A stretch of 64,000 nucleotides of DNA, taken from NCBI RefSeq assembly GCF_004519335.1, contig NZ_SOZD01000001.1, positions 434,001 to 498,000 of the forward strand, read 5' to 3'. The notes under the pieces are model-generated. The model was not told the origin of the DNA and did no database searches. It was given only the letters and a program-made list of their open reading frames with translations. The DNA is from Jiella endophytica (GTDB lineage: Bacteria > Pseudomonadota > Alphaproteobacteria > Rhizobiales > Rhizobiaceae). Positions 14,958 through 23,513 of the stretch are shown here, one piece after another. A program made the position numbers and the translations under genes. Within the stretch, counting starts at the first letter, position 1; each line of letters starts with the position of its first letter.

Positions 14958-15704
14958 TCAGGAGTCCTTTGGCCGGTCGAGGCTGAGCGGATCCTTCGGA
15001 CCGGCGATCGAAGGGGACGGGCTCGTCCCCATGATCTGGGCGAGAACGTCGTCGGCCGACTGCGATTGGCCACCAATCCCCGCGGCAAGCAGCTGCCGGT
15101 CGAGATCGGAGCCGGATTCCAGCGCCGCCAGTTCCTCGCCGGCCTCGAGACGTCCCTGGGTCATCTCCTGCTTCTTGCGGATGCGCTCCAGCGAATCCAT
15201 CGCGCTGCCGAGCTTGGAGTTGACGCCGGACTGGGTGGTCGCGATGGCCGACTGCGCCTTGATCAGCGACTCGTTGGCCTTCACGTTCTCGACCTCGCGG
15301 CGCATCTGCTGGATGCGCTGCTCGGTGTCCTGAACCGCCTTGATCATCTGCTGCTGGCGCTGCGACAGCCTTTCGAGCTCGGCCTCGTCGCGGCTCGCCT
15401 CCGCGCGGGTCTTGGAGATCCGGTCGGCAAGGCCGCGGGCGAGATCCTCGCGGCCGGCCTGCAACGCGGCGCGGGCGCTGTCGGTGTCCTTCTGCTCCTT
15501 GGCGCGCGCCTCGTCGACGCGGCGCTGCAGCGACTTGTTGGAGGCCATGATGCCGGCAAGGTCGGAGCGGGCGCGGCGCAGCGCCGCCTCGGCCTCGCGG
15601 ATCTCCTGGTCGAGGATGCGCAGCGCCTGGGTGTCGGCGATGCCTTCGGCCGCCTCGTTGACGCCACCCTTCACGGCGGAAAACAGCTTGTTCCAGACAC
15701 TCAT
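14958..15704 (-). CDS. pspA: PspA/IM30-family membrane-stress protein (YjfJ type)
   Basis: A 248-residue, almost wholly helical protein. It starts MSVWNKLFSAVKGGVNEAAEG, an amphipathic helix expected to touch lipid, then long heptad-rich helices (residues about 25-190, e.g. IREAEAALRRARSDLAGIM and MIKAVQDTEQRIQQMRREV), and a disordered Ser/Pro tail. PspA forms ESCRT-III-like assemblies that stabilise damaged inner membrane. No pspF or pspBC is near; instead the neighbour set is that of E. coli YjfJ. The ATG at 15704 overlaps the stop of the DUF2170 gene (ATGA), so the two are translationally coupled. Confidence 0.88.
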   Translation of the reverse strand: MSVWNKLFSAVKGGVNEAAEGIADTQALRILDQEIREAEAALRRARSDLAGIMASNKSLQRRVDEARAKEQKDTDSARAALQAGREDLARGLADRISKTRAEASRDEAELERLSQRQQQMIKAVQDTEQRIQQMRREVENVKANESLIKAQSAIATTQSGVNSKLGSAMDSLERIRKKQEMTQGRLEAGEELAALESGSDLDRQLLAAGIGGQSQSADDVLAQIMGTSPSPSIAGPKDPLSLDRPKDS

Positions 15705-16132
15705 GCGTCGAATTCCCCGTTCTTCCATTCCTCGATCATGTTGGCCGCGTCGACGGCATTGACGGCCAGCACCGCGACCTCCTCGACCATCGCATGGGCG
15801 CTGGAGCGCGCCGACAGCGAGCCGAACAGCTCGTAATATTCCTTGCCGCCGACGGTGACGATGCCGAAGGTCGACAGCGGCACCAGCTTGTGGGTCGAAA
15901 GGATCATCCGCTCGAAGGCCTCGCGGCGTGGAATGTCGTCCGCCGGGGCGAGGATGACGCTGGCGAGCACCTGGTCGCCGCTGGCAGTCACCAGCACGTC
16001 GAGGTCGCCCTTTTCCTTCAGCGTCACGCGGATCACGTCGCCGGTCTCGACGACGCTGACGTCGACGTCGCCCAACTCCTCCGGATCGGAAGCGAAAAGC
16101 TCGGTCAGGCTGGCAAGATTCCACTGTTCCAC
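15701..16132 (-). CDS. DUF2170 protein (YjfI type), first gene of the pspA operon
   Basis: A soluble acidic protein of about 143 residues: MEQWNLASLTELF, two beta-rich halves (VDVSVVETGDVIRVTLKEKGDLDVLV, given here in part; SVILAPADDIPRREAFERMIL) and a final helix NAVDAANMIEEWKNGEFDA. It matches E. coli YjfI, always found next to a PspA. Its biochemical role is unknown. GTG 16132 is preferred over TTG 16153 because GAGGG sits seven bases before it. The stop overlaps the pspA ATG. It diverges from the potassium channel gene over a 149-nt spacer. Confidence 0.82.
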   Translation of the reverse strand: MEQWNLASLTELFASDPEELGDVDVSVVETGDVIRVTLKEKGDLDVLVTASGDQVLASVILAPADDIPRREAFERMILSTHKLVPLSTFGIVTVGGKEYYELFGSLSARSSAHAMVEEVAVLAVNAVDAANMIEEWKNGEFDA

Positions 16133-16168
16133 TGGGTATCCCTCGGTTGCCAAGGTTCGCTGCGGGGT

Positions 16169-16253
16169 TCTACATCACCGGCCGAGACGTGTCCAAACGG
16201 ATTCGCACCTGCCGCGACCAATATTGACCTTACGGAATTTATGGCCGCATATC
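16169..16253. promoter_or_regulatory. Back-to-back promoters of the divergent Psp/ATP-grasp island
   Basis: Rightward: TTGACC (16224-16229), 17-18 bp, GCATAT/CATATC (16247-16253), about 30 nt before the channel GTG. Leftward: TTGGAC (16196-16191), 16 bp, TGTAGA (16174-16169). The two -35 boxes are 27 bp apart, so one regulator bound between them could control both arms. No sigma-54 element (GG-N10-GC), as used by enterobacterial pspA, was seen. Confidence 0.5.
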
Positions 16254-16281
16254 GCCTGAAATCGCCCAGACGGGATGTCTC

Positions 16282-17340
16282 GTGCCCCTGTTCTCGCAAT
16301 ATCTGCGCCGCTTCTACGTCGCACTCGCCGAGCTCACATGGGGAGCCATCCTCGCCATCGCAATCGCTCATTTTCTCGCGAGCTGGCTGCTTCTGGAGCT
16401 CGCCGGCGAAAGCGACTTCGTCTCCCGACCCGTCGACTTCGTCTATTATTACATCGTCACCGCGACGACGGTGGGATACGGTGATCTGTCCCCGCAGACC
16501 GGGGCGGGCCGCCTCGTCTCTGCCTTCATCGTCCTGCCCGGTGCCATCGCCATCTTCACCGCCGTGCTCGGCAAGCTCCTTTCGGCGGTGAGCAACAGCT
16601 GGAGGGGCCGCATGAAAGGGCTCGGCAATTTCAACGACCGCGCCGACCATGACGTGGTCATGGGCTGGCGCGAGGGGGCGACGCAGCGGCTTCTTTCGCT
16701 CATCGTCGAGGAGCGGCGCAGCGGCGAGGCGCCGACGGTGCTGATTGCCAAGGAGCTCGAACAAAACCCGCTGCCCGACAAGATCGACTATGTCCGGGTC
16801 GAGCGCCTGGCCGATCCCGCCGGCCTCGAGCGGGCAGGGGCTGCCAATGCCCGTTCGATCATCGTGCGCGGCTCCAGCGACGACGAGACCCTCGCCGCCG
16901 CCCTCGTCGCCTCGGCCACCTGCGAGCGCGCCCATGTCGTCGCCTATTTCGATTTCGACACCTCGGCCGAGATCCTGATGCGGCAGAACCCGCGCATCGA
17001 ATGCGTCACCTCGCTGTCGTCCGAGCTGATGGTGCGCGCCGCCCGCGATCCCGGCTCGTCGGTGGTGGCGAGCCTGCTGCTGTCCGCCGGCAAGGAGGAC
17101 ACTGCCTTCTCGCTGAAGGTGCCGGAAACTGTCGCGCCCTTCGCCTATGACGGCGCGCTCGCAGCCCTTCGCCGCCACCATGCGGTGACGCTGGTCGGCA
17201 TGGCCCGTCACGGAAATGTCGATCTGAACTGCAAGGAAAAGACCGAGATTCGATCCGGCGACGTGCTCTACTACATCGCCGATCAGCGGCTCGATCCCGG
17301 CCGCATCGTCTGGGACGCGTTCGCAAAGGACAGCGCATGA
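16282..17340 (+). CDS. Potassium channel with RCK/TrkA-N domain, head of the DUF2491-DUF350-DUF1190-ATP-grasp operon
   Basis: A 352-residue two-helix potassium channel: helix 1 at about residues 18-40, pore with selectivity filter T62-T-V-G-Y-G-D68, helix 2 at about 76-98, then a cytoplasmic TrkA-N-like region (DHDVVMGWREGATQRLLSLI, ARSIIVRGSSDDETLAAAL) and a C-terminal TrkA-C-like part (SGDVLYYIADQRL). The canonical GxGxxG of NAD-binding RCK domains is replaced by MGWREGATQR, so the ligand may differ. GTG 16282 has only a weak ribosome-binding site. Its stop overlaps the DUF2491 start (ATGA). In this context it probably restores ion balance when PspA-type membrane stress occurs. Confidence 0.85.
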   Translation: MPLFSQYLRRFYVALAELTWGAILAIAIAHFLASWLLLELAGESDFVSRPVDFVYYYIVTATTVGYGDLSPQTGAGRLVSAFIVLPGAIAIFTAVLGKLLSAVSNSWRGRMKGLGNFNDRADHDVVMGWREGATQRLLSLIVEERRSGEAPTVLIAKELEQNPLPDKIDYVRVERLADPAGLERAGAANARSIIVRGSSDDETLAAALVASATCERAHVVAYFDFDTSAEILMRQNPRIECVTSLSSELMVRAARDPGSSVVASLLLSAGKEDTAFSLKVPETVAPFAYDGALAALRRHHAVTLVGMARHGNVDLNCKEKTEIRSGDVLYYIADQRLDPGRIVWDAFAKDSA

Positions 17341-17999
17341 TCTTCTCGATCTTCGGCGGCAAGGACAAGACGGCGGATCTTCCCGCCGAGCGCGGGCCGC
17401 TCGGCGTCGCGATCGGCGGGGCGATCGAGATCGACACGCTCGGCCTTCAGGCCGACGCCGCGGGCGCTGCTCCCGGCATGGACCTGCCGCGCGGCGGCAA
17501 CTTCATCGTCGTCGCCTATGGCGAGGCCCGGCTCGACGGCGAGACGGTGCTGTCGCGCTATTATGACGAGGACGACCGCCTGCTGCAGACGCTGTCGGCG
17601 ACGGGCCGGCCGGGCGACGCCATCCAGGACATCAGCATCTATGCCTCGTGGGACAGCGTCGTGCCGGTGGGCCATGCCGAGTGGGACCGCTGGGCCGGTC
17701 CCGCCGGGCTGATCGGCCAGCCGCGCTACGATGCCGACGGCATCCTCTTCGAGCGCTACTGGGGCGAGGGCTCCGGCCGTGCCGATCTCGTCGAATTCGT
17801 CGAGGACGTCGACGACGGGCGCCGCGTCCGGGCGATCCACCAGACCTGCATGCTCTATGCCCGCCCGCTCGGCCGGGCGCAGGAGATGCTGCTGATCAAC
17901 ATCGAGCGGGATATCGCCGAGCGTTCCAGCCGCGAGGGTGGCTCGGTGGAATTCCTGCTCGGCTATGGCCTGTCGCCGGCCGACGTGCGACGCGTCTGA
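17337..17999 (+). CDS. DUF2491 protein (YjfK type)
   Basis: A 220-residue cytoplasmic protein matching E. coli YjfK: short basic start (MIFSIFGGKDKTADLPAERG), LGVAIGGAIEIDTLGLQ, GGNFIVVAYGEARLDGETVLSRYY, a DAIQDISIYASWDSVVPV middle, and RYWGEGSGRADLVEF. No catalytic motif is visible; the beta-rich pattern suggests a binding protein. It is coupled to the channel gene by a 4-nt overlap and followed after 87 nt by the DUF350 gene. Role inferred only from constant linkage to PspA, DUF350 and the ATP-grasp ligase. Confidence 0.82.
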   Translation: MIFSIFGGKDKTADLPAERGPLGVAIGGAIEIDTLGLQADAAGAAPGMDLPRGGNFIVVAYGEARLDGETVLSRYYDEDDRLLQTLSATGRPGDAIQDISIYASWDSVVPVGHAEWDRWAGPAGLIGQPRYDADGILFERYWGEGSGRADLVEFVEDVDDGRRVRAIHQTCMLYARPLGRAQEMLLINIERDIAERSSREGGSVEFLLGYGLSPADVRRV

Positions 18000-18086
18000 G
18001 TGCGAAACCGTCGCCGGTGCGGCGGCAAGGGGCTTCGAGAAGGACCCGCGGAACGCTGCTTCCGCAGAAGTTGAGAGGGATTTACC

Positions 18087-18488
18087 ATGTTCGGTTACGT
18101 CGCGGGCCTGCCGGCCTTCCTGGCCTATTTCATCCTCGGCCTGGTGCTCTACGGGCTGTTTGCCTGGGTCTACACCACGCTGACCCCGCAGAAGGAAATC
18201 ACCCTGATCCGCGCCGGCAACACGGCCGCCGTCGTCGCCTTCATGGGCGCGATCCTCGGCTTCTCGCTGCCTTTGTCCTCCGCCGCGGCGAATTCGGTCG
18301 GCATCATCGATTTCATCATCTGGTCGATCATCGGCCTGCTCGCCCAGATCCTCGCCTTCTTCGTCGCCTCGCGGACGATGACGGGCCTGCATCAGCGCAT
18401 CACCGACGGCGAGATCGCGGCAGGGCTCTGGGGCGGCGGCATCGCGCTCGCGGTCGGCATCCTCAACGCCGCCTGCATGACCTATTGA
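18087..18488 (+). CDS. DUF350 membrane protein (YjfL type)
   Basis: A 133-residue protein with four membrane helices: LPAFLAYFILGLVLYGLFAW, AAVVAFMGAILGFSLPLSSA, VGIIDFIIWSIIGLLAQILA and IAAGLWGGGIALAVGILNAA. This is one DUF350 unit; the family forms small integral membrane modules always found with PspA-like or ATP-grasp partners. A basic/acidic stretch between helices 1 and 2 (TPQKEITLIRAGN) faces the cytoplasm or periplasm. GAGAGGG precedes the ATG by seven bases. It may be the membrane anchor or the target of the ligase encoded two genes downstream; that is inference. Confidence 0.85.
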   Translation: MFGYVAGLPAFLAYFILGLVLYGLFAWVYTTLTPQKEITLIRAGNTAAVVAFMGAILGFSLPLSSAAANSVGIIDFIIWSIIGLLAQILAFFVASRTMTGLHQRITDGEIAAGLWGGGIALAVGILNAACMTY

Positions 18489-18499
18489 GGGAGGCGGTG

Positions 18500-19093
18500 A
18501 TGAAGAGACGTTACACCAGAAGAACGCCGCCGGCGCTGACGCTCGGCACCATCGCGGCGACGGGCATGGTGCTCTATGGCTGCGGCGACGACACCCCCAA
18601 GGAGGTCGCCTTCACCACCCCGCAGCAATGCGCCGATGCCGGCATCGACGCGCAGATCTGCGAGGCCGAATATCAGCAGGCGCTGCAGAAGCATCTCACC
18701 GAGGCGCCGCATTACGCCAGCCTGCAGGAGTGCGAGGCGGCGATCGGCGAGGGCAAGTGCTTCCAGGCCGGCGGTAGCAGCAACCAGACTTCGGCCGGCC
18801 AGACGAGCGGCTCGGGGTCCGGCTTCTTCGTGCCGTTCATGACCGGCTATCTTGTCTCCTCGGCGCTGTCGAACCTTTCGAACTATTCCGCCTATCGCGA
18901 CTATCGCTACAGTTCCGGCTATTCCTCGACGCCGATCTACCGGACCCGCTCCGGCGACACCGTCACCTCGACGATCAGCAACGGCAAGTCGGTCAGCCGG
19001 CCCGTCAACGTCAACACGCGCACGGTGTCGCGCTCGGGCTTCGGCGGCTGGTCGTCGTCGTCGCGCGGCGGCGGCGGCTTCTTCGGTGGCTGA
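18500..19093 (+). CDS. DUF1190 protein (YjfM type), envelope-exposed
   Basis: A 197-residue protein: basic start MKRRYTRRTPPALTLG, a hydrophobic segment ending GMVLYGCGDD, a cysteine-containing domain (four cysteines in QQCADAGIDAQICEAEY and QECEAAIGEGKCFQAG), then a Ser/Tyr-rich middle (YSAYRDYRYSSGYSS) and a Gly/Ser tail ending in GGGGFFGG. LYGC is a poor lipobox, so it is either a non-canonical lipoprotein or signal-anchored. Length and layout match E. coli YjfM. GGGAGG lies six bases upstream of the start. The low-complexity tail could be a substrate for peptide modification by the downstream ligase; nothing in the sequence proves this. Confidence 0.8.
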   Translation: MKRRYTRRTPPALTLGTIAATGMVLYGCGDDTPKEVAFTTPQQCADAGIDAQICEAEYQQALQKHLTEAPHYASLQECEAAIGEGKCFQAGGSSNQTSAGQTSGSGSGFFVPFMTGYLVSSALSNLSNYSAYRDYRYSSGYSSTPIYRTRSGDTVTSTISNGKSVSRPVNVNTRTVSRSGFGGWSSSSRGGGGFFGG

Positions 19094-19162
19094 CGCTCCG
19101 GTCATCCCTGCGGCCATCATGGCTGCCGCGTCACGGGGCCGGCGGCCGCGGAGACGCCGGCG

Positions 19163-20320
19163 ATGAAGCGCATCGCGATCCCCGAGCGGGAAAACTGGCG
19201 GGAGGCGGCGGAGGCGGTCGGCTTCGGCTTTCACGAAATGTATGGCGAGCCTTACTGGATCGACGCCGCCGCCTATGCCTTCTCGCTCGCCGAGATCGAG
19301 GAGGCGATCGAGGCGCCGAGCCAGGAACTGCACGACATGTGCCTGGATCTCGTCGCCGACGTCGTGCGCGACGAGGCGGCGATGGAGCGGCTGCAGATCC
19401 CCGAGGCGATGCGCGATCTCGTCGCCAGATCCTGGCAGCGGGGCGACCGGCATCTCTATGGCCGCTTCGACTTTGCCTATGACGGCACCGGCCCGGCCAA
19501 GCTCCTCGAATACAACGCCGACACACCGACCTCGATCTTCGAATCCGCCTATTTCCAGTACAACTGGCTGACCGACAATATCGCCCGGGGCGTCCTGCCG
19601 GAGGATGCCGACCAGTACAATTCGATCCAGGAATCCCTCGTCGAGGCCTTCGGTGCCTTCTCCAGGGACCCGATCTTTCACTTCGCCGCCTGGATCGAGA
19701 GCGACGAGGACCGCGGCACTGCCGCCTATCTGATGGACTGTGCGGTGCAGGCCGGCCACCGCACCAGCCTCCTCGATATCCGCGACATCGGCGTCGACGC
19801 CGAGGGCCGCTTCACCGACACCGAGGATCGGGTGATCGACCTCCTCTTCAAGCTCTATCCATGGGAGGACATGCTGCGCGAGCCCTTCGCCGCTTATCTT
19901 TCGACCGCAGGCGCGGCGATCGTCGAGCCGCCCTGGAAGGCAATCCTTTCCAACAAGGGCATCCTGCCGCTGCTCTGGGACCGCCATGCGGGCCATCCCA
20001 ACCTGCTGCCTGCCTGGTTCGAGGACGATCCGCAGGCTGCGACCCTGAAGGATGCCGTCAGGAAGCCGCTGTTTTCCCGCGAGGGCGAGAACGTCGAAGT
20101 GCGCAAGGGCGGCGAAATCGTCGACAGCACCGACGGCCCATATGGCGAGGAGGGCCATGTCGTCCAGGCGCTGACGCAGCTGTTCGAGGCCGACGGGTCC
20201 TATGCCGTGCTCGGCTCGTGGATCGTCGGCGACAGGGCCTGCGGGATGGGAGTGCGGGAGGACCGCTCGCCGGTCACCCGCAACCTCTCGCGTTTTGTCC
20301 CCCACATCATCCTCGAGTGA
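19163..20320 (+). CDS. ATP-grasp amide ligase, glutathionylspermidine-synthase C-terminal type (YjfC/YgiC-like)
   Basis: A 385-residue protein equivalent to the synthetase half of E. coli Gss without the amidase half. Family marks: GRFDFAYDGTGPAKLLEYNADTPTS (shown here in part, residues about 97-121), LLDIRDIGVD, FKLYPWEDML, the lysine region EPPWKAILSNKGILPLLW, and the final GDRACGMGVREDRSPVTRN. ATP-grasp enzymes form amide bonds through acyl phosphates; YjfC relatives are expected to join an amine such as a polyamine to a peptide carboxylate, but the substrate is not known. It closes the operon begun by the potassium channel and is 69 nt after the DUF1190 gene. Confidence 0.85.
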   Translation: MKRIAIPERENWREAAEAVGFGFHEMYGEPYWIDAAAYAFSLAEIEEAIEAPSQELHDMCLDLVADVVRDEAAMERLQIPEAMRDLVARSWQRGDRHLYGRFDFAYDGTGPAKLLEYNADTPTSIFESAYFQYNWLTDNIARGVLPEDADQYNSIQESLVEAFGAFSRDPIFHFAAWIESDEDRGTAAYLMDCAVQAGHRTSLLDIRDIGVDAEGRFTDTEDRVIDLLFKLYPWEDMLREPFAAYLSTAGAAIVEPPWKAILSNKGILPLLWDRHAGHPNLLPAWFEDDPQAATLKDAVRKPLFSREGENVEVRKGGEIVDSTDGPYGEEGHVVQALTQLFEADGSYAVLGSWIVGDRACGMGVREDRSPVTRNLSRFVPHIILE

Positions 20321-20705
20321 CCGTCGCCGGCGCCGTGCCGCGCGACGGGGCGGGGCGGGCAAGCGACGATCGCTGCGGCGGGCCTTGTCGCTTCTGACGT
20401 AACGGAAATTTCTTGTCGCGGCCCCGCCGTCGCGGTATCACCGTCGGCGGCACCCTTTGTCGGACGATCGCCGCCAAGCCAGCCTGATCGGCGGTTCGTT
20501 TGCGGGACTTTCAGTGCCTCGCCTGGTGCCGGAAGAAGCACCGACGAAGTCTCATTCGCTGTGTTTCCCGCATCGGCGGGGCTGGACGTCGTGTCGGCCC
20601 GCTGCTGCGAGGAGGTCCGCATCTGCCGGTCGCGACCCTTCATCGGGCCGACGGGCGATGGCGGGCAGGGGGCAGATGTTCCACGCTTTGGAAGAGCTTC
20701 GAGAG
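20321..20705. other. Intergenic stretch with no gene seen
   Basis: A 385-nt gap between the ATP-grasp ligase and the SEL1 protein. Frames open across it have low-complexity, arginine- or proline-rich translations and no domain. An AT-richer patch (ACGGAAATTTCTTGTCGC near 20402-20419) could carry the promoter of the next gene. No convincing terminator was found. Confidence 0.4.
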
Positions 20706-23513
20706 ATGACCAGCATTCGATCCTCCCGCCGGCTCGCGCTCCTTGCCGGCGCTGCCTTCCTCGCCGTCGCGCCCGCCAGGGCCGATCAGCTCGTCGCCCA
20801 GGTGGCCGCAGATTGCCGCGAGGCGAAGGACCACTTCGAGATCGCCCGGCAGATCGGCACGCCGGAAGCCTATCAGGCGCATATCGACGCCTTCGGCGCC
20901 TGCCCCTATGCGAGCTTTGCCCGCATCCTCAAGGGCCAGGCCGAGGGTGCGGGCGGCGCGTCGGCGGCCGGGGAGGGCCGGGCGGCCAAGCCGGATACCG
21001 CGATGTCGCCGGGCGCCCCGCTGGAGCCTTCGCAACCCGCCGCCGCCGAGGCGCCGGCCGGCGACGGGTCTACGACACCCGATGTCGCCGTCGATCCGTT
21101 TTCAGGCAGCGGTGGCACGGCCGCCGGCGCCGATGGCCAGCCGGCTCCGGTGGCAATCCCGGATCCGGGCGTTGCGAGCCCCGCCGAACCGTCCGCTTCC
21201 GAGGCGCCGGGCGCCGCCACCGACGTCGCCGAGCCGCAGCCGCCGGCAGCCGCCCCGCAGCCCTCGACCGACGAAGCCAAGCTCCTCGCCGACACGCTGG
21301 CCGACCGGCTGAACGACCTGCAGGGCGGGGCCACCGAGAACGGCCCGAGGGTGCGCTACGATTCCGCCGTGCTCGACAATGGCGACCTGTTCATCACCAA
21401 TCTGAGGCTTACCAAGGACGACGGCACGCCGGAATGGAGCGGCTTCGTCGCCCCCTCGGCCGTCGTGCTGAAGCCGGTGATCGAGGCGGACGGCACGTTC
21501 ACCGCCAGCTCGATCTTCATGACCAAGACCAGCGTCAGGGCGACCGAGAAGAACGGCCCGAACGACCGGGTCGCGACGATCTCCTCGATCTCGATCCTCG
21601 ACCCGCGCCTGGCCGCGATCGGTGCCAAGCCCGCCAGCGACAGTCTCGGAGCGGTCGACGTCAGGGGCATCGACATCCGCTCCGTCGTCGGCTTCGATCC
21701 TGCCGGCGAACTCTTGAAGATCGCCGCGATCCAGCTGACTACCAACGGCACCAGCGACGGCCTGCCGCAATCGGCCACCTTCAGCGTCAAGAACCTGTTC
21801 TTCACGCCCGAGCAGATGGCGCGGATCTCCGAGAGCAACCCTGCCGACCTCGCCGATCTCGGGCCGGACTTCTTCGACTTCACCTTCACCACCCTGATGC
21901 AGCGGGACACGGCGAAGCGCGATCTGAAGCTGACGGAGGTCTTCGAGATCGGCAAGGAGGCGAACCTCACCCTCTCGACGGCCTTCGGCAACTTCAGCCC
22001 GGCCGACATCAGGCTGCTGCTCGGCGCCGGCGATCCCTCGGCGCTGATCGGCCTGCAGGTGAGCCTCGACGAGGCGGAGATGAATTTCGTCAACACCTCG
22101 CTCGTCGACAAGGTGCTGGCGATCGCCGCCAGGCAGCAGAACATCGATGCGCCGCTGTTCCGGGCGGCGATCCCGAGTGCCGCCCGCGACGCGATCAGCA
22201 ATTCGACCGGCAATGCCGCGCTCGCCGAAACCGTCGCGACGGCACTGCGAACCTTCCTCGACGATCCACGCTCGCTGCGGCTGTCGCTGAAGCCCGAGCA
22301 GCCGCTGCCGCTGATCGGCTCGGCCTTCCAGATCGCCGGTTCGGGCGATCCGGTTCAGGCGACTGCGATGCTGTCGCCGAGCCTGTCGGTGAATGGCGGG
22401 CCGCCCGTGCCGCTGGTGCTGTCGGAGCCGCCTGCACCGGCCGACGCAGCTCCTCCGGCCGATGCCGCTCCGCCTGCGGATGCCGCTCCGCCTGCGGAGC
22501 CGGCTCCCTCGGCGGCCGACGGAAGCAGCGACCAGGCGCTCGTCGTGCCGGTCGATCCGCTGCCGCTGGTGCCGTCGCCGGATGGCGCCACCGAAGCGCC
22601 GGTGCCGACGCCGGTCGAGCCCGAGGTGCCGGCCCGCAGCAGCGCTGCCGCCTCCGTTCTGGCCGAATGCGACCGGCTCGCCGCCGACTCCGACGATCCG
22701 ACGAAGCCTGCCGGCGTCGAAGGGGTGAAGTCGCCCGGCGACATCGACGTCAAGACGGCGCTGCCGGCCTGCGAGGCGGCGCACCGTCTGGCGCCGGACG
22801 ATCCGCGGATCACCTTCCAGCTCGGCCGGGCCTATCAGGCGGCCGGCCGCGACGAGGAGGCGGCGCGGCTCTACGGGGAGGCGGCCGATGCCGGCCAGTC
22901 CGTCGCTCAATACGAGCTGGCGCTTGCCTATTACGACGGCCGCGGCGTCGAGCAGAGCCCGCAAAAGGCGATCGAGCAGCTGCAGAAATCGGCAGCCCTC
23001 GGTAACGGCTTTTCGAAATACTTCCTCGGCATCGAGAAGGTGAACGGCAATTACATCCCGCAGGACTATCCGGCCGCCTACCAGCTGTTCCAGGAGGCTG
23101 TCGACTTCGGGGTGCCCGAGGCGCTCGTCGAGCTCGGCAAGATGGAATACAGCGGCCAGGGCGTGCCGGAGGACTACGACAAGGCCTACGCCTTCTATAC
23201 CCAGGCGGCGGCCAAGGACGTCCCCGGCGGCTATTTCTACGTCGGCTTCATGGACTCCTTCGGCGTCGGCTCCTCGGACGCGACGCCGCTCGCCGCCGCG
23301 CAGAACATGATGAAGGGGCTTGCCCGCGGCTATGCCGATGCCGAGGAGCTGATCGTCACCAACAGCGGCCAGATCTTCGAGCCGCAGGTCCGTCAGGCCT
23401 TCCAGGACTATCTGAGGGGCGAGGGCTACTATCGCGGCAGGAGCGACGGGGTATTCGGCCCGGCGACGCTGCAGGCGATCAAGGCCTGGCGCACCGCCAC
23501 CAATGGCGGCTGA
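20706..23513 (+). CDS. Large periplasmic SEL1-repeat protein with C-terminal peptidoglycan-binding-like domain
   Basis: A 935-residue exported protein. Signal peptide LALLAGAAFLAVAPARAD; a small helical domain with two cysteines (DCREAKDHFEIARQIGTP, FGACPYASF); an Ala/Pro/Gly-rich linker to about residue 190; a large domain of about 360 residues with strands and helices that I do not recognise (e.g. GDLFITNLRLTKDDG); a second linker with tandem ADAAPP units (about 575-605); SEL1 repeats from about 698 to 865 (VAQYELALAYYDGRGVEQSPQKA); and a last unit GYYRGRSDGVFGPATLQAIKAWR resembling a peptidoglycan-binding repeat. It probably scaffolds an envelope complex at the cell wall. ATG 20706 is chosen for its signal peptide. 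Confidence 0.75.
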   Translation: MTSIRSSRRLALLAGAAFLAVAPARADQLVAQVAADCREAKDHFEIARQIGTPEAYQAHIDAFGACPYASFARILKGQAEGAGGASAAGEGRAAKPDTAMSPGAPLEPSQPAAAEAPAGDGSTTPDVAVDPFSGSGGTAAGADGQPAPVAIPDPGVASPAEPSASEAPGAATDVAEPQPPAAAPQPSTDEAKLLADTLADRLNDLQGGATENGPRVRYDSAVLDNGDLFITNLRLTKDDGTPEWSGFVAPSAVVLKPVIEADGTFTASSIFMTKTSVRATEKNGPNDRVATISSISILDPRLAAIGAKPASDSLGAVDVRGIDIRSVVGFDPAGELLKIAAIQLTTNGTSDGLPQSATFSVKNLFFTPEQMARISESNPADLADLGPDFFDFTFTTLMQRDTAKRDLKLTEVFEIGKEANLTLSTAFGNFSPADIRLLLGAGDPSALIGLQVSLDEAEMNFVNTSLVDKVLAIAARQQNIDAPLFRAAIPSAARDAISNSTGNAALAETVATALRTFLDDPRSLRLSLKPEQPLPLIGSAFQIAGSGDPVQATAMLSPSLSVNGGPPVPLVLSEPPAPADAAPPADAAPPADAAPPAEPAPSAADGSSDQALVVPVDPLPLVPSPDGATEAPVPTPVEPEVPARSSAAASVLAECDRLAADSDDPTKPAGVEGVKSPGDIDVKTALPACEAAHRLAPDDPRITFQLGRAYQAAGRDEEAARLYGEAADAGQSVAQYELALAYYDGRGVEQSPQKAIEQLQKSAALGNGFSKYFLGIEKVNGNYIPQDYPAAYQLFQEAVDFGVPEALVELGKMEYSGQGVPEDYDKAYAFYTQAAAKDVPGGYFYVGFMDSFGVGSSDATPLAAAQNMMKGLARGYADAEELIVTNSGQIFEPQVRQAFQDYLRGEGYYRGRSDGVFGPATLQAIKAWRTATNGG

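What the first reader, a model, noticed from the sequence alone, without database searches (positions are those of the whole stretch)
14958..20320. Divergent PspA / potassium channel / DUF350 / ATP-grasp ligase island
Seven genes around one 149-bp promoter region form a coherent envelope-stress unit: DUF2170-PspA leftward, and TrkA-N channel-DUF2491-DUF350-DUF1190-ATP-grasp ligase rightward. Seen directly: gene order, ATGA couplings (15701-15704, 17337-17340), selectivity filter, four-helix DUF350, ATP-grasp motifs. Known: E. coli carries yjfI-J-K-L-M-C as one co-directional operon and no function has been settled for it. Different here: the set is split in two, and a single-chain potassium channel with a non-canonical RCK motif heads the right arm. 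Inference: the ligase modifies a membrane or envelope partner (the Ser/Gly/Tyr-rich DUF1190 tail or DUF350), PspA repairs membrane, and the channel resets potential.
Basis: partly seen in the sequence, partly recalled or inferred. Interest (0 to 1): 0.75.

Follow-up and report, generated by a model that had tools for sequence, protein, structure and literature searches.

The report
PspA island with spermidine-ligase substrate tail
A bacterial gene cluster already described around the membrane-stress protein PspA carries an enzyme that joins spermidine to peptides, and the neighbouring lipoprotein ends in a conserved Gly-Gly tail that looks like that enzyme's missing target, which makes a puzzle about this cluster testable.

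Summary
All seven genes are there, as described. The island is not new: Ravi et al. 2024 (PMC11237479, section read) describe the same set, potassium channel included, as a PspA/CesT-Tir operon linked to polyamine metabolism. The channel is no oddity: 21 of 26 and 20 of 38 complete islands have it; the E. coli operon lacks it. RefSeq calls the ligase orthologues YgiC/YjfC peptide--spermidine ligases; the paper of that title is not held.

What this work adds is a likely substrate. DUF1190 proteins linked to the ligase end in Gly-Gly in 105 of 126 distinct tails, against 4.7% Gly-Gly elsewhere in the last 40 residues, with a Gly-[Phe/Tyr/Leu]-Gly motif upstream. Where no DUF1190 is recognised, a small protein near the ligase usually carries a similar tail (16 of 17; 17 or 22 of 26 by pattern). 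Long glutathione-type ligases do not (0 or 1 of 12, same calls). Best reading: the ligase caps this lipoprotein's C-terminal glycine with spermidine. How PspA, DUF350, DUF2491 and the channel use that is inference.

The parts
14958..15704 (-). PspA/IM30-family gene (YjfJ-type), 248 aa
   Evidence: Pfam PF04012 149 bits; canonical-PspA equivalog TIGR02977 only 39.1 of 242.95 bits
15701..16132 (-). DUF2170 gene (YjfI / BacA type); GTG start at 16132 or TTG at 16153; overlaps PspA by 4 bases
   Evidence: PF09938 131.9 bits on the 15701-16153 frame; BacA equivalog 80.6 of 300 bits; sequence
16133..16281 (.). Divergent intergenic region; blocks next to DUF2170 are conserved in five close relatives
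   Evidence: alignment of window, L055, L156-L158
16282..17340 (+). Two-helix potassium channel with cytosolic RCK-like region, 352 aa, filter TVGYGD
   Evidence: PF07885 51.4 bits, PF02254 21.4 (below cut-off); MthK best PDB match, E 5.7e-13; alignment A2
17337..17999 (+). DUF2491 (YjfK) gene, 220 aa, predicted beta-rich
   Evidence: PF10679 157.4 bits; AlphaFold mean pLDDT 91.4; no PDB match at E<=0.001
18087..18488 (+). DUF350 (YjfL) membrane protein gene, 133 aa
   Evidence: PF03994 127.1 bits; one match in the genome
18500..19093 (+). DUF1190 (YjfM/YgiB-type) gene, 197 aa, lipobox-like LYGC, Cys-rich core, disordered tail
   Evidence: PF06693 100.5 bits; AlphaFold mean pLDDT 66.9, residues 159-197 below 50. 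The pattern did not flag the window's lipobox because it read only the first 260 residues of a 508-residue open frame; L156 with the same LYGC was flagged
19031..19045 (+). R-S-G-F-G motif of the DUF1190 tail (residues 178-182)
   Evidence: R178, G180, F181, G182 invariant in the 39 proteins aligned (window and 38 of 62 references)
19085..19090 (+). C-terminal Gly196-Gly197, proposed spermidine acceptor
   Evidence: G196 invariant, G197 at least 90% in the same 39; 105 of 126 distinct tails end GG
19163..20320 (+). Stand-alone ATP-grasp ligase, relative of E. coli YgiC/YjfC, 385 aa
   Evidence: PF03738 490.1 bits; PDB 7uk8 / 7uk6 E 1e-120 / 9.7e-117; eight E. coli Gss positions kept in 17 of 17 ligases

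Best explanation
This is a PspA/YjfI operon of the polyamine-linked kind. Shown here: gene content, conserved linkage, and a conserved C-terminal tail on the protein near the ligase. Inferred: the stand-alone ligase uses ATP to activate the C-terminal glycine of the DUF1190 lipoprotein and joins it by an amide bond to spermidine, much as glutathionylspermidine synthetase uses the terminal glycine of glutathione. The Gly-aromatic-Gly motif further up the disordered tail would dock the ligase, and a linker of variable length would let the end reach the active site. The capped tail would carry a polycation into the envelope, where it could bind anionic lipid or LPS; PspA and its YjfI chaperone, DUF350, DUF2491 and, where present, the K+ channel would act with it in membrane protection. 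The confidence is for the acceptor step only; the physiological role is a weaker inference (about 0.3).
For: (1) Of 126 distinct ligase-linked DUF1190 tails, 105 end GG and all 126 end in G, S or T; Gly is 93% at -2, 83% at -1 and 4% at -3, while GG fills 227 of 4788 internal positions of the last 40 residues. (2) The other six families of the fetched loci (60 bits or more, repeats not removed) end GG in 0 of 336 and 0 of 277 ORFs, DUF1190 in 72 of 84 and 53 of 63, other frames in 57 of 8232 and 66 of 7390. (3) In 39 aligned proteins (window and 38 of 62 references) Cys positions, R-x-GFG and the penultimate glycine are invariant while the linker varies. (4) The tail is predicted disordered. 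(5) Similar tails occur on ORFs that the DUF1190 profile misses: 16 of 17 named loci, 13 of the 16 ending GG; 17 of 26 unnamed loci by the pattern and 22 of 26 by a relaxed one, with 1 of 26 on the opposite strand. (6) Twelve long GspSA-type ligase loci: 0 of 12 by the pattern, 1 of 12 by the relaxed one, the same as on their opposite strand. (7) 62 of 68 DUF1190 genes lie within 7 kb of a stand-alone ligase; the six without one show neither motif nor Gly-Gly end in their last 40 residues. (8) Both E. coli pairs fit: YjfM ends WGG and YgiB ends MGG. (9) Gss positions R316, D318, E330, N332, K498, K533, R538, R598 are kept in 17 of 17 ligases (roles recalled).
Against: No chemistry was tested. 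21 of 126 tails end GS, SS, AT or GT, so glycine is not obligatory. Of 26 ligases without DUF1190, 9 have no tail by the pattern and 4 none by the relaxed one (L271, L275, L277, L288; L275 has RGGFG but ends GGGE). The alignment left out 24 of 62 references, among them tails ending in serine (L200, L206, L215, L229) and L199, so its invariance is partly choice. Topology is awkward: the ligase needs cytosolic ATP while most DUF1190 proteins carry a lipobox-like site (permissive pattern 115 of 127, some visibly spurious), so capping must precede export or the tail must stay inside. Some partners missed by the profile (Bradyrhizobium type) share an N-terminal KRS..VALL.MG stretch and may be distant DUF1190 relatives. 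A docking tail could be conserved without being the acceptor. The sequences are related, so counts are not independent.
Confidence: 0.6

Rival explanations
1. The DUF1190 tail only docks the ligase near the membrane; the true substrates are free peptides or another protein, and the terminal Gly-Gly is part of the binding motif.
For: Tail conserved with the ligase but no activity shown; the internal R-x-GFG motif is as conserved as the end in the 39 aligned; tails ending in S or T exist (21 of 126).
Against: The two terminal residues are conserved at the exact C-terminus with a linker of variable length, which suits a ligase that uses a terminal carboxylate better than a pure docking motif.
Confidence: 0.2
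2. The Gly/Ser-rich tail is an envelope-targeting or self-association element unrelated to the ligase, and the linkage reflects a shared pathway only.
For: Tails are Gly/Ser-rich and predicted disordered.
Against: The six DUF1190 relatives without a nearby ligase lack it, and partners that the DUF1190 profile misses have it beside the ligase.
Confidence: 0.12
3. One reading: PspA repairs the membrane, the channel resets membrane potential, the ligase modifies an envelope partner.
For: PspA and K+ channel families identified; E. coli yjfIJKL upregulated in heat-evolved strains (PMC12492005, passages); the bac operon, which also starts with DUF2170-PspA, linked to biofilm in P. aeruginosa (PMC10948618, passages).
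Against: The channel is missing from 5 of 26 and 18 of 38 complete islands, so it is not essential to the core. Direction of K+ flow and gating ligand were not tested.
Confidence: 0.2
4. The two arms are neighbours by chance.
For: They are divergently transcribed here.
Against: The same genes lie together in 26 and 38 complete islands, in one direction in 15 of 26 and 7 of 38 and in two arms in the rest.
Confidence: 0.02

Closest known systems
CesT/Tir-PspA polyamine operon, third group (Ravi et al. 2024, PMC11237479)
   Same: Same parts: DUF2170, PspA, GspS-like ATP-grasp ligase, K+ channel, DUF350, DUF1190, DUF2491 (section 19 read)
   Different: Here the genes lie in two divergent arms, as in all 11 same-class islands of the unnamed set. 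I saw no mention of a DUF1190 tail motif in the section and passages read
E. coli yjfI-J-K-L-M-C and ygiB-C
   Same: Same families; ligase 48% identical to YjfC and to YgiC; DUF1190 proteins end in GG
   Different: No channel in the E. coli operon and all its genes run one way
Glutathionylspermidine synthetase/amidase (GspSA, Gss)
   Same: Same synthetase family and eight conserved positions
   Different: One domain of 385 aa; positions 335, 337, 395, 441, 446, 582 and 610 differ from Gss (roles recalled); the long GspSA-type loci lack the tail partner
SUMO-spermidine conjugates (PMC12270671, abstract and passages)
   Same: Spermidine joined to a C-terminal Gly-Gly carboxylate
   Different: Eukaryotic, made by E1/E2, not by an ATP-grasp ligase
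P. aeruginosa bac operon (PMC10948618, passages)
   Same: DUF2170-PspA pair heading an operon
   Different: The authors find no spermidine synthase homologue in or around it; its other genes were not compared here

Membership tests
Ravi third-group CesT/Tir-PspA polyamine operon | DUF2170-PspA pair together with GspS-like ligase, DUF350, DUF1190, DUF2491 and K+ channel | tested here: met
   Pfam hits for all, TrkA_N alone below cut-off, against the description
YgiC/YjfC peptide-spermidine ligases | Stand-alone GSP_synth protein, closest in the PDB to YgiC/YjfC | tested here: met
   385 aa, PF03738 490.1 bits, no other Pfam domain; 7uk8 and 7uk6 best PDB matches
YgiC/YjfC peptide-spermidine ligases | Catalytic positions of the synthetase kept | tested here: met
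   Eight Gss positions kept in 17 of 17; residue roles recalled, not looked up
YgiC/YjfC peptide-spermidine ligases | Spermidine-ligating activity | not testable with these tools
   needs enzyme assay
GspSA bifunctional enzyme | Fused amidase domain | tested here: not met
   385 aa, one Pfam domain; NF007801 135.5 of 882 bits
Canonical PspA of the pspABC system | Passes the PspA equivalog cut-off | tested here: not met
   TIGR02977 39.1 of 242.95 bits; psp genes elsewhere in the genome not tested
MthK-type RCK potassium channel | Two-helix pore with K+ filter and RCK domain | tested here: met
   Ion_trans_2 51.4 bits, TVGYGD filter; RCK region aligned to MthK, though TrkA_N is below its Pfam cut-off
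MthK-type RCK potassium channel | Calcium gating | not testable with these tools
   needs electrophysiology

The most novel reading that the evidence does not exclude
Bacteria carry a portable C-terminal tag (Arg-x-Gly-aromatic-Gly, flexible linker, terminal Gly-Gly) that marks membrane lipoproteins for capping with spermidine by a stand-alone ATP-grasp ligase: a protein modification that puts a tethered polycation at the envelope, used by PspA systems, and perhaps able to plug or tune the K+ channel encoded next to it.
Probability: 0.45. Interest if true: 0.75.

Novelty: new member of a known kind. Interest (0 to 1): 0.52.

Why it matters
The physiological substrate of YgiC/YjfC-type ligases is not named in any listing, abstract start or passage that I saw in the paper searches. 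That is a limited check: most listed papers were not opened, 8 of the 48 papers were not listed, PMC12470040 (holds DUF1190) was seen in the listing only, and the key paper (Pederick et al. 2023) is not held and may already test these tails. If the tail is the acceptor, a widespread but unexplained PspA operon gains a defined biochemical step that can be tested in E. coli K-12, and bacteria gain a C-terminal protein-polyamine modification comparable to SUMO-spermidine in eukaryotes.

Tried and rejected
Channel as the novelty: rejected, since it is in the published description and in 41 of 64 complete islands. RCK motif as odd: rejected, MthK has the same kind. DUF2491 function from fold: the model is confident (mean pLDDT 91.4), but Foldseek gave no PDB match at E<=0.001 (best YceI, E 0.013), and VIA-align gave nothing with Z>=5 (best YgiF, Z 3.5, 94 aligned, rmsd 4.6); inconclusive, and a published outer-membrane porin guess for YjfK (PMC12492005, passages) is neither backed nor excluded. 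Promoters and sigma-54 sites were not scanned. A ligase-tail complex was not predicted, as the tool folds single chains. The genome was not searched for further tail-bearing proteins.

Rows dropped before counts: L119 and L122 appear as unlinked only because those short loci end before the ligase; they duplicate L050 and L056 and are not among the six unlinked. One search removed repeats by identical last 60 residues (144 to 126); searches did not. From the ligase rows, 12 long rows were set aside as GspSA type by score (209.6-260 bits) and open frame (621-656 aa), without testing for an amidase domain, and two fragments (in G286 and G408) were dropped, leaving 88. The 16 of 17 were picked by eye from a list that also held spurious frames.
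Full report
WHAT IS THERE. Searches place all seven genes where the finding puts them. Pfam supports each, with the RCK part of the channel (TrkA_N 21.4 bits) just under cut-off. The leftward arm is DUF2170 then PspA, overlapping by four bases; the rightward arm is channel, DUF2491, DUF350, DUF1190, ATP-grasp ligase. The genome has one DUF350 match and one GSP_synth match. The closest named ligases are from Aurantimonas and Jiella, 83-85% identical (very near records may be left out there). The genome has a gene close to carboxynorspermidine decarboxylase (nspC, 395.4 bits, cut-off 409.05), so a spermidine-type polyamine can plausibly be made by that route (inference).

ALREADY KNOWN. Ravi et al. 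2024 (PMC11237479; [quoted passage not shown] RefSeq names E. coli YjfC and YgiC peptide--spermidine ligases. The paper of that title, Pederick et al. 2023, I know only from reference lists; it is not held. PMC12568646 calls the two enzymes recently characterised peptidylpolyamine synthetases (passage). YgiC and YjfC structures are in the PDB (7uk8, 7uk6). E. coli yjfIJKL is upregulated in heat-evolved strains (PMC12492005, passages).

HOW COMMON. In a draw of 398 genomes from the phylum, 29 have DUF2491 and 50 have DUF2170. Counting complete six-gene islands (PspA, DUF2170, DUF2491, DUF350, DUF1190, ligase), one search finds 26 in the unnamed set (25 from that draw, the window included, and one from the class draw), 21 with the channel; and 38 among the 80 named ligase loci, 20 with the channel. 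Split arms: 11 of 26 and 31 of 38. In the unnamed set the 11 split islands are the 11 from the window's own class and the 15 one-way islands are from other classes (kinship, layout). In the split islands the ligase travels with either arm (unnamed 7 with PspA and 4 with DUF1190; named 15 and 16). So the channel is a frequent accessory and the split is ordinary. The 80 named loci are the best matches to an alignment headed by the window's ligase and over-represent alphaproteobacteria.

THE TAIL. Looking at the proposed substrate, one search showed 22 of 27 island DUF1190 ORFs ending Gly-Gly. A wider survey gave 144 ORFs with a ligase in the same locus, 126 with distinct last 60 residues. Of these 105 end GG, 11 GS, 8 SS, one AT, one GT; Gly is 93% at position -2, 83% at -1, 4% at -3; GG fills only 227 of 4788 internal positions in the last 40 residues; 126 of 126 have G-[FYL]-G within the last 60, and 88 of 126 have RGG[FY]G. 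In alignment A4 (window and 38 of 62 references, mean column identity 28%) the invariant columns are four cysteines, a proline, R-x-G-F-G and the penultimate glycine, with the final glycine at 90% or more. I chose those 39; the 24 left out include four tails ending in serine (L200, L206, L215, L229), so this invariance is partly choice and the counts are the fairer measure. The linker between motif and end varies widely. AlphaFold leaves residues 159-197 below pLDDT 50 (mean for the model 66.9).

CONTROLS. The other six families in the fetched loci (60 bits or more) end GG in 0 of 336 ORFs (PspA 49, DUF2170 53, channel 35, DUF2491 45, DUF350 73, ligase 81) and 0 of 277 (40, 39, 21, 39, 58, 80), while other frames of 60 residues or more do so in 57 of 8232 and 66 of 7390 (repeats not removed). 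With a loose tail pattern over the named loci, 58 of 1271 ORFs near the ligase on its strand matched, and 18 of 6459 elsewhere; 17 of those 18 are DUF1190 genes of the same loci. In the 398-genome draw I count 88 stand-alone ligases (12 long ones and two fragments set aside); 62 have DUF1190 within 7 kb, and 62 of 68 DUF1190 genes have such a ligase. The six unlinked DUF1190 relatives (L143-L148) show neither motif nor Gly-Gly end in their last 40 residues; they are weak family members (30-74 bits). The 26 ligases without DUF1190 were then read: 17 of 26 have a same-strand ORF with the tail by the pattern, and 22 of 26 by a relaxed one, against 1 of 26 on the opposite strand. The four without are L271, L275 (RGGFG but ending GGGE), L277 and L288. 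In the named set 17 loci had no DUF1190 hit; in 16 an ORF just upstream of the ligase has a GFG tail, 13 of them ending GG and three ending in serine, and the miss (L176) is a 3.5-kb contig. Twelve long ligases, taken as GspSA whose substrate is glutathione, gave 0 of 12 by the pattern and 1 of 12 by the relaxed one, which looks like a spurious frame; their opposite strand also gave 1 of 12.

ARE THE OTHER PARTNERS UNRELATED? Four were scanned in Pfam at E<=0.05: three had no match, and the fourth (L214) matched only profile positions 118-154 of DUF1190, the tail, at 17.3 bits under the cut-off of 22. The L184/L185/L214 type has a different N-terminal part with a glycine-rich hydrophobic segment; the Bradyrhizobium type shares an N-terminal stretch with DUF1190 and may be a distant, shortened relative. 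So 'portable tag' is well supported for a few loci and plausible for the rest.

THE ENZYME. Of 26 Gss positions looked at, R316, D318, E330, N332, K498, K533, R538 and R598 are kept in all 17 ligases aligned (so is Q568), E391 in 16 of 17, while 335, 337, 395, 441, 446, 582 and 610 differ from Gss. Their roles are recalled from the Gss structure work, not looked up. This fits an enzyme that keeps ATP and acyl-phosphate chemistry but not glutathione recognition.

MECHANISM. Shown: linkage, tail conservation, ligase family. Inferred from the family: amide bond between a C-terminal carboxylate and spermidine. Inferred here: the acceptor is the DUF1190 C-terminal glycine. Weak inference: a tethered polycation shields the membrane or LPS and works with PspA and, where present, a K+ channel. 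The unresolved point is order of events, as the ligase needs cytosolic ATP and most DUF1190 proteins have a lipobox-like site (115 of 127 by a permissive pattern that includes visible false hits).

VERDICT. The island is a known kind in a further genome. The substrate tail is the part worth pursuing. No listing, abstract start or passage that I saw states it (searches; most listed papers were not opened), but the one paper most likely to contain it could not be read.

Noticed in passing
L081, L082, L085-L088, L090, L091: Hits to the window-channel profile lie in 8 of 26 fetched DUF2170 loci that lack the complete island (40-97 bits). In L082 the gene has Pfam Ion_trans, in a locus with a two-copy DUF350 and a spermidine-synthase domain. 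A second polyamine-PspA operon type may have its own, different channel.
   Followed up: partly
L062, L065, L066, L067: DUF2491-family match in a long open frame followed by DUF350 without hits to the other five profiles: a possible separate DUF2491-DUF350 module.
   Followed up: no
L189, L193, L197, L211, L233, L306: Small proteins near the ligase with a GGFGG or RGFGG motif and Gly/His-rich or Gly/Ser-ending tails: perhaps a second substrate. In L233 it is the only tail-bearing partner seen.
   Followed up: no
window 17337-17999: DUF2491 has a confident AlphaFold model (mean pLDDT 91.4) but no clear solved relative.
   Followed up: partly
window 16133-16281: Blocks next to the DUF2170 start, including TCGGTTGCCAAG and TGTCCAAA, are shared by the window and four close relatives; possible leftward promoter or operator.
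   Followed up: no
window 20457-23513: Next gene downstream: long frame with Sel1 repeats and a peptidoglycan-binding domain; not one of the seven genes described.
   Followed up: no
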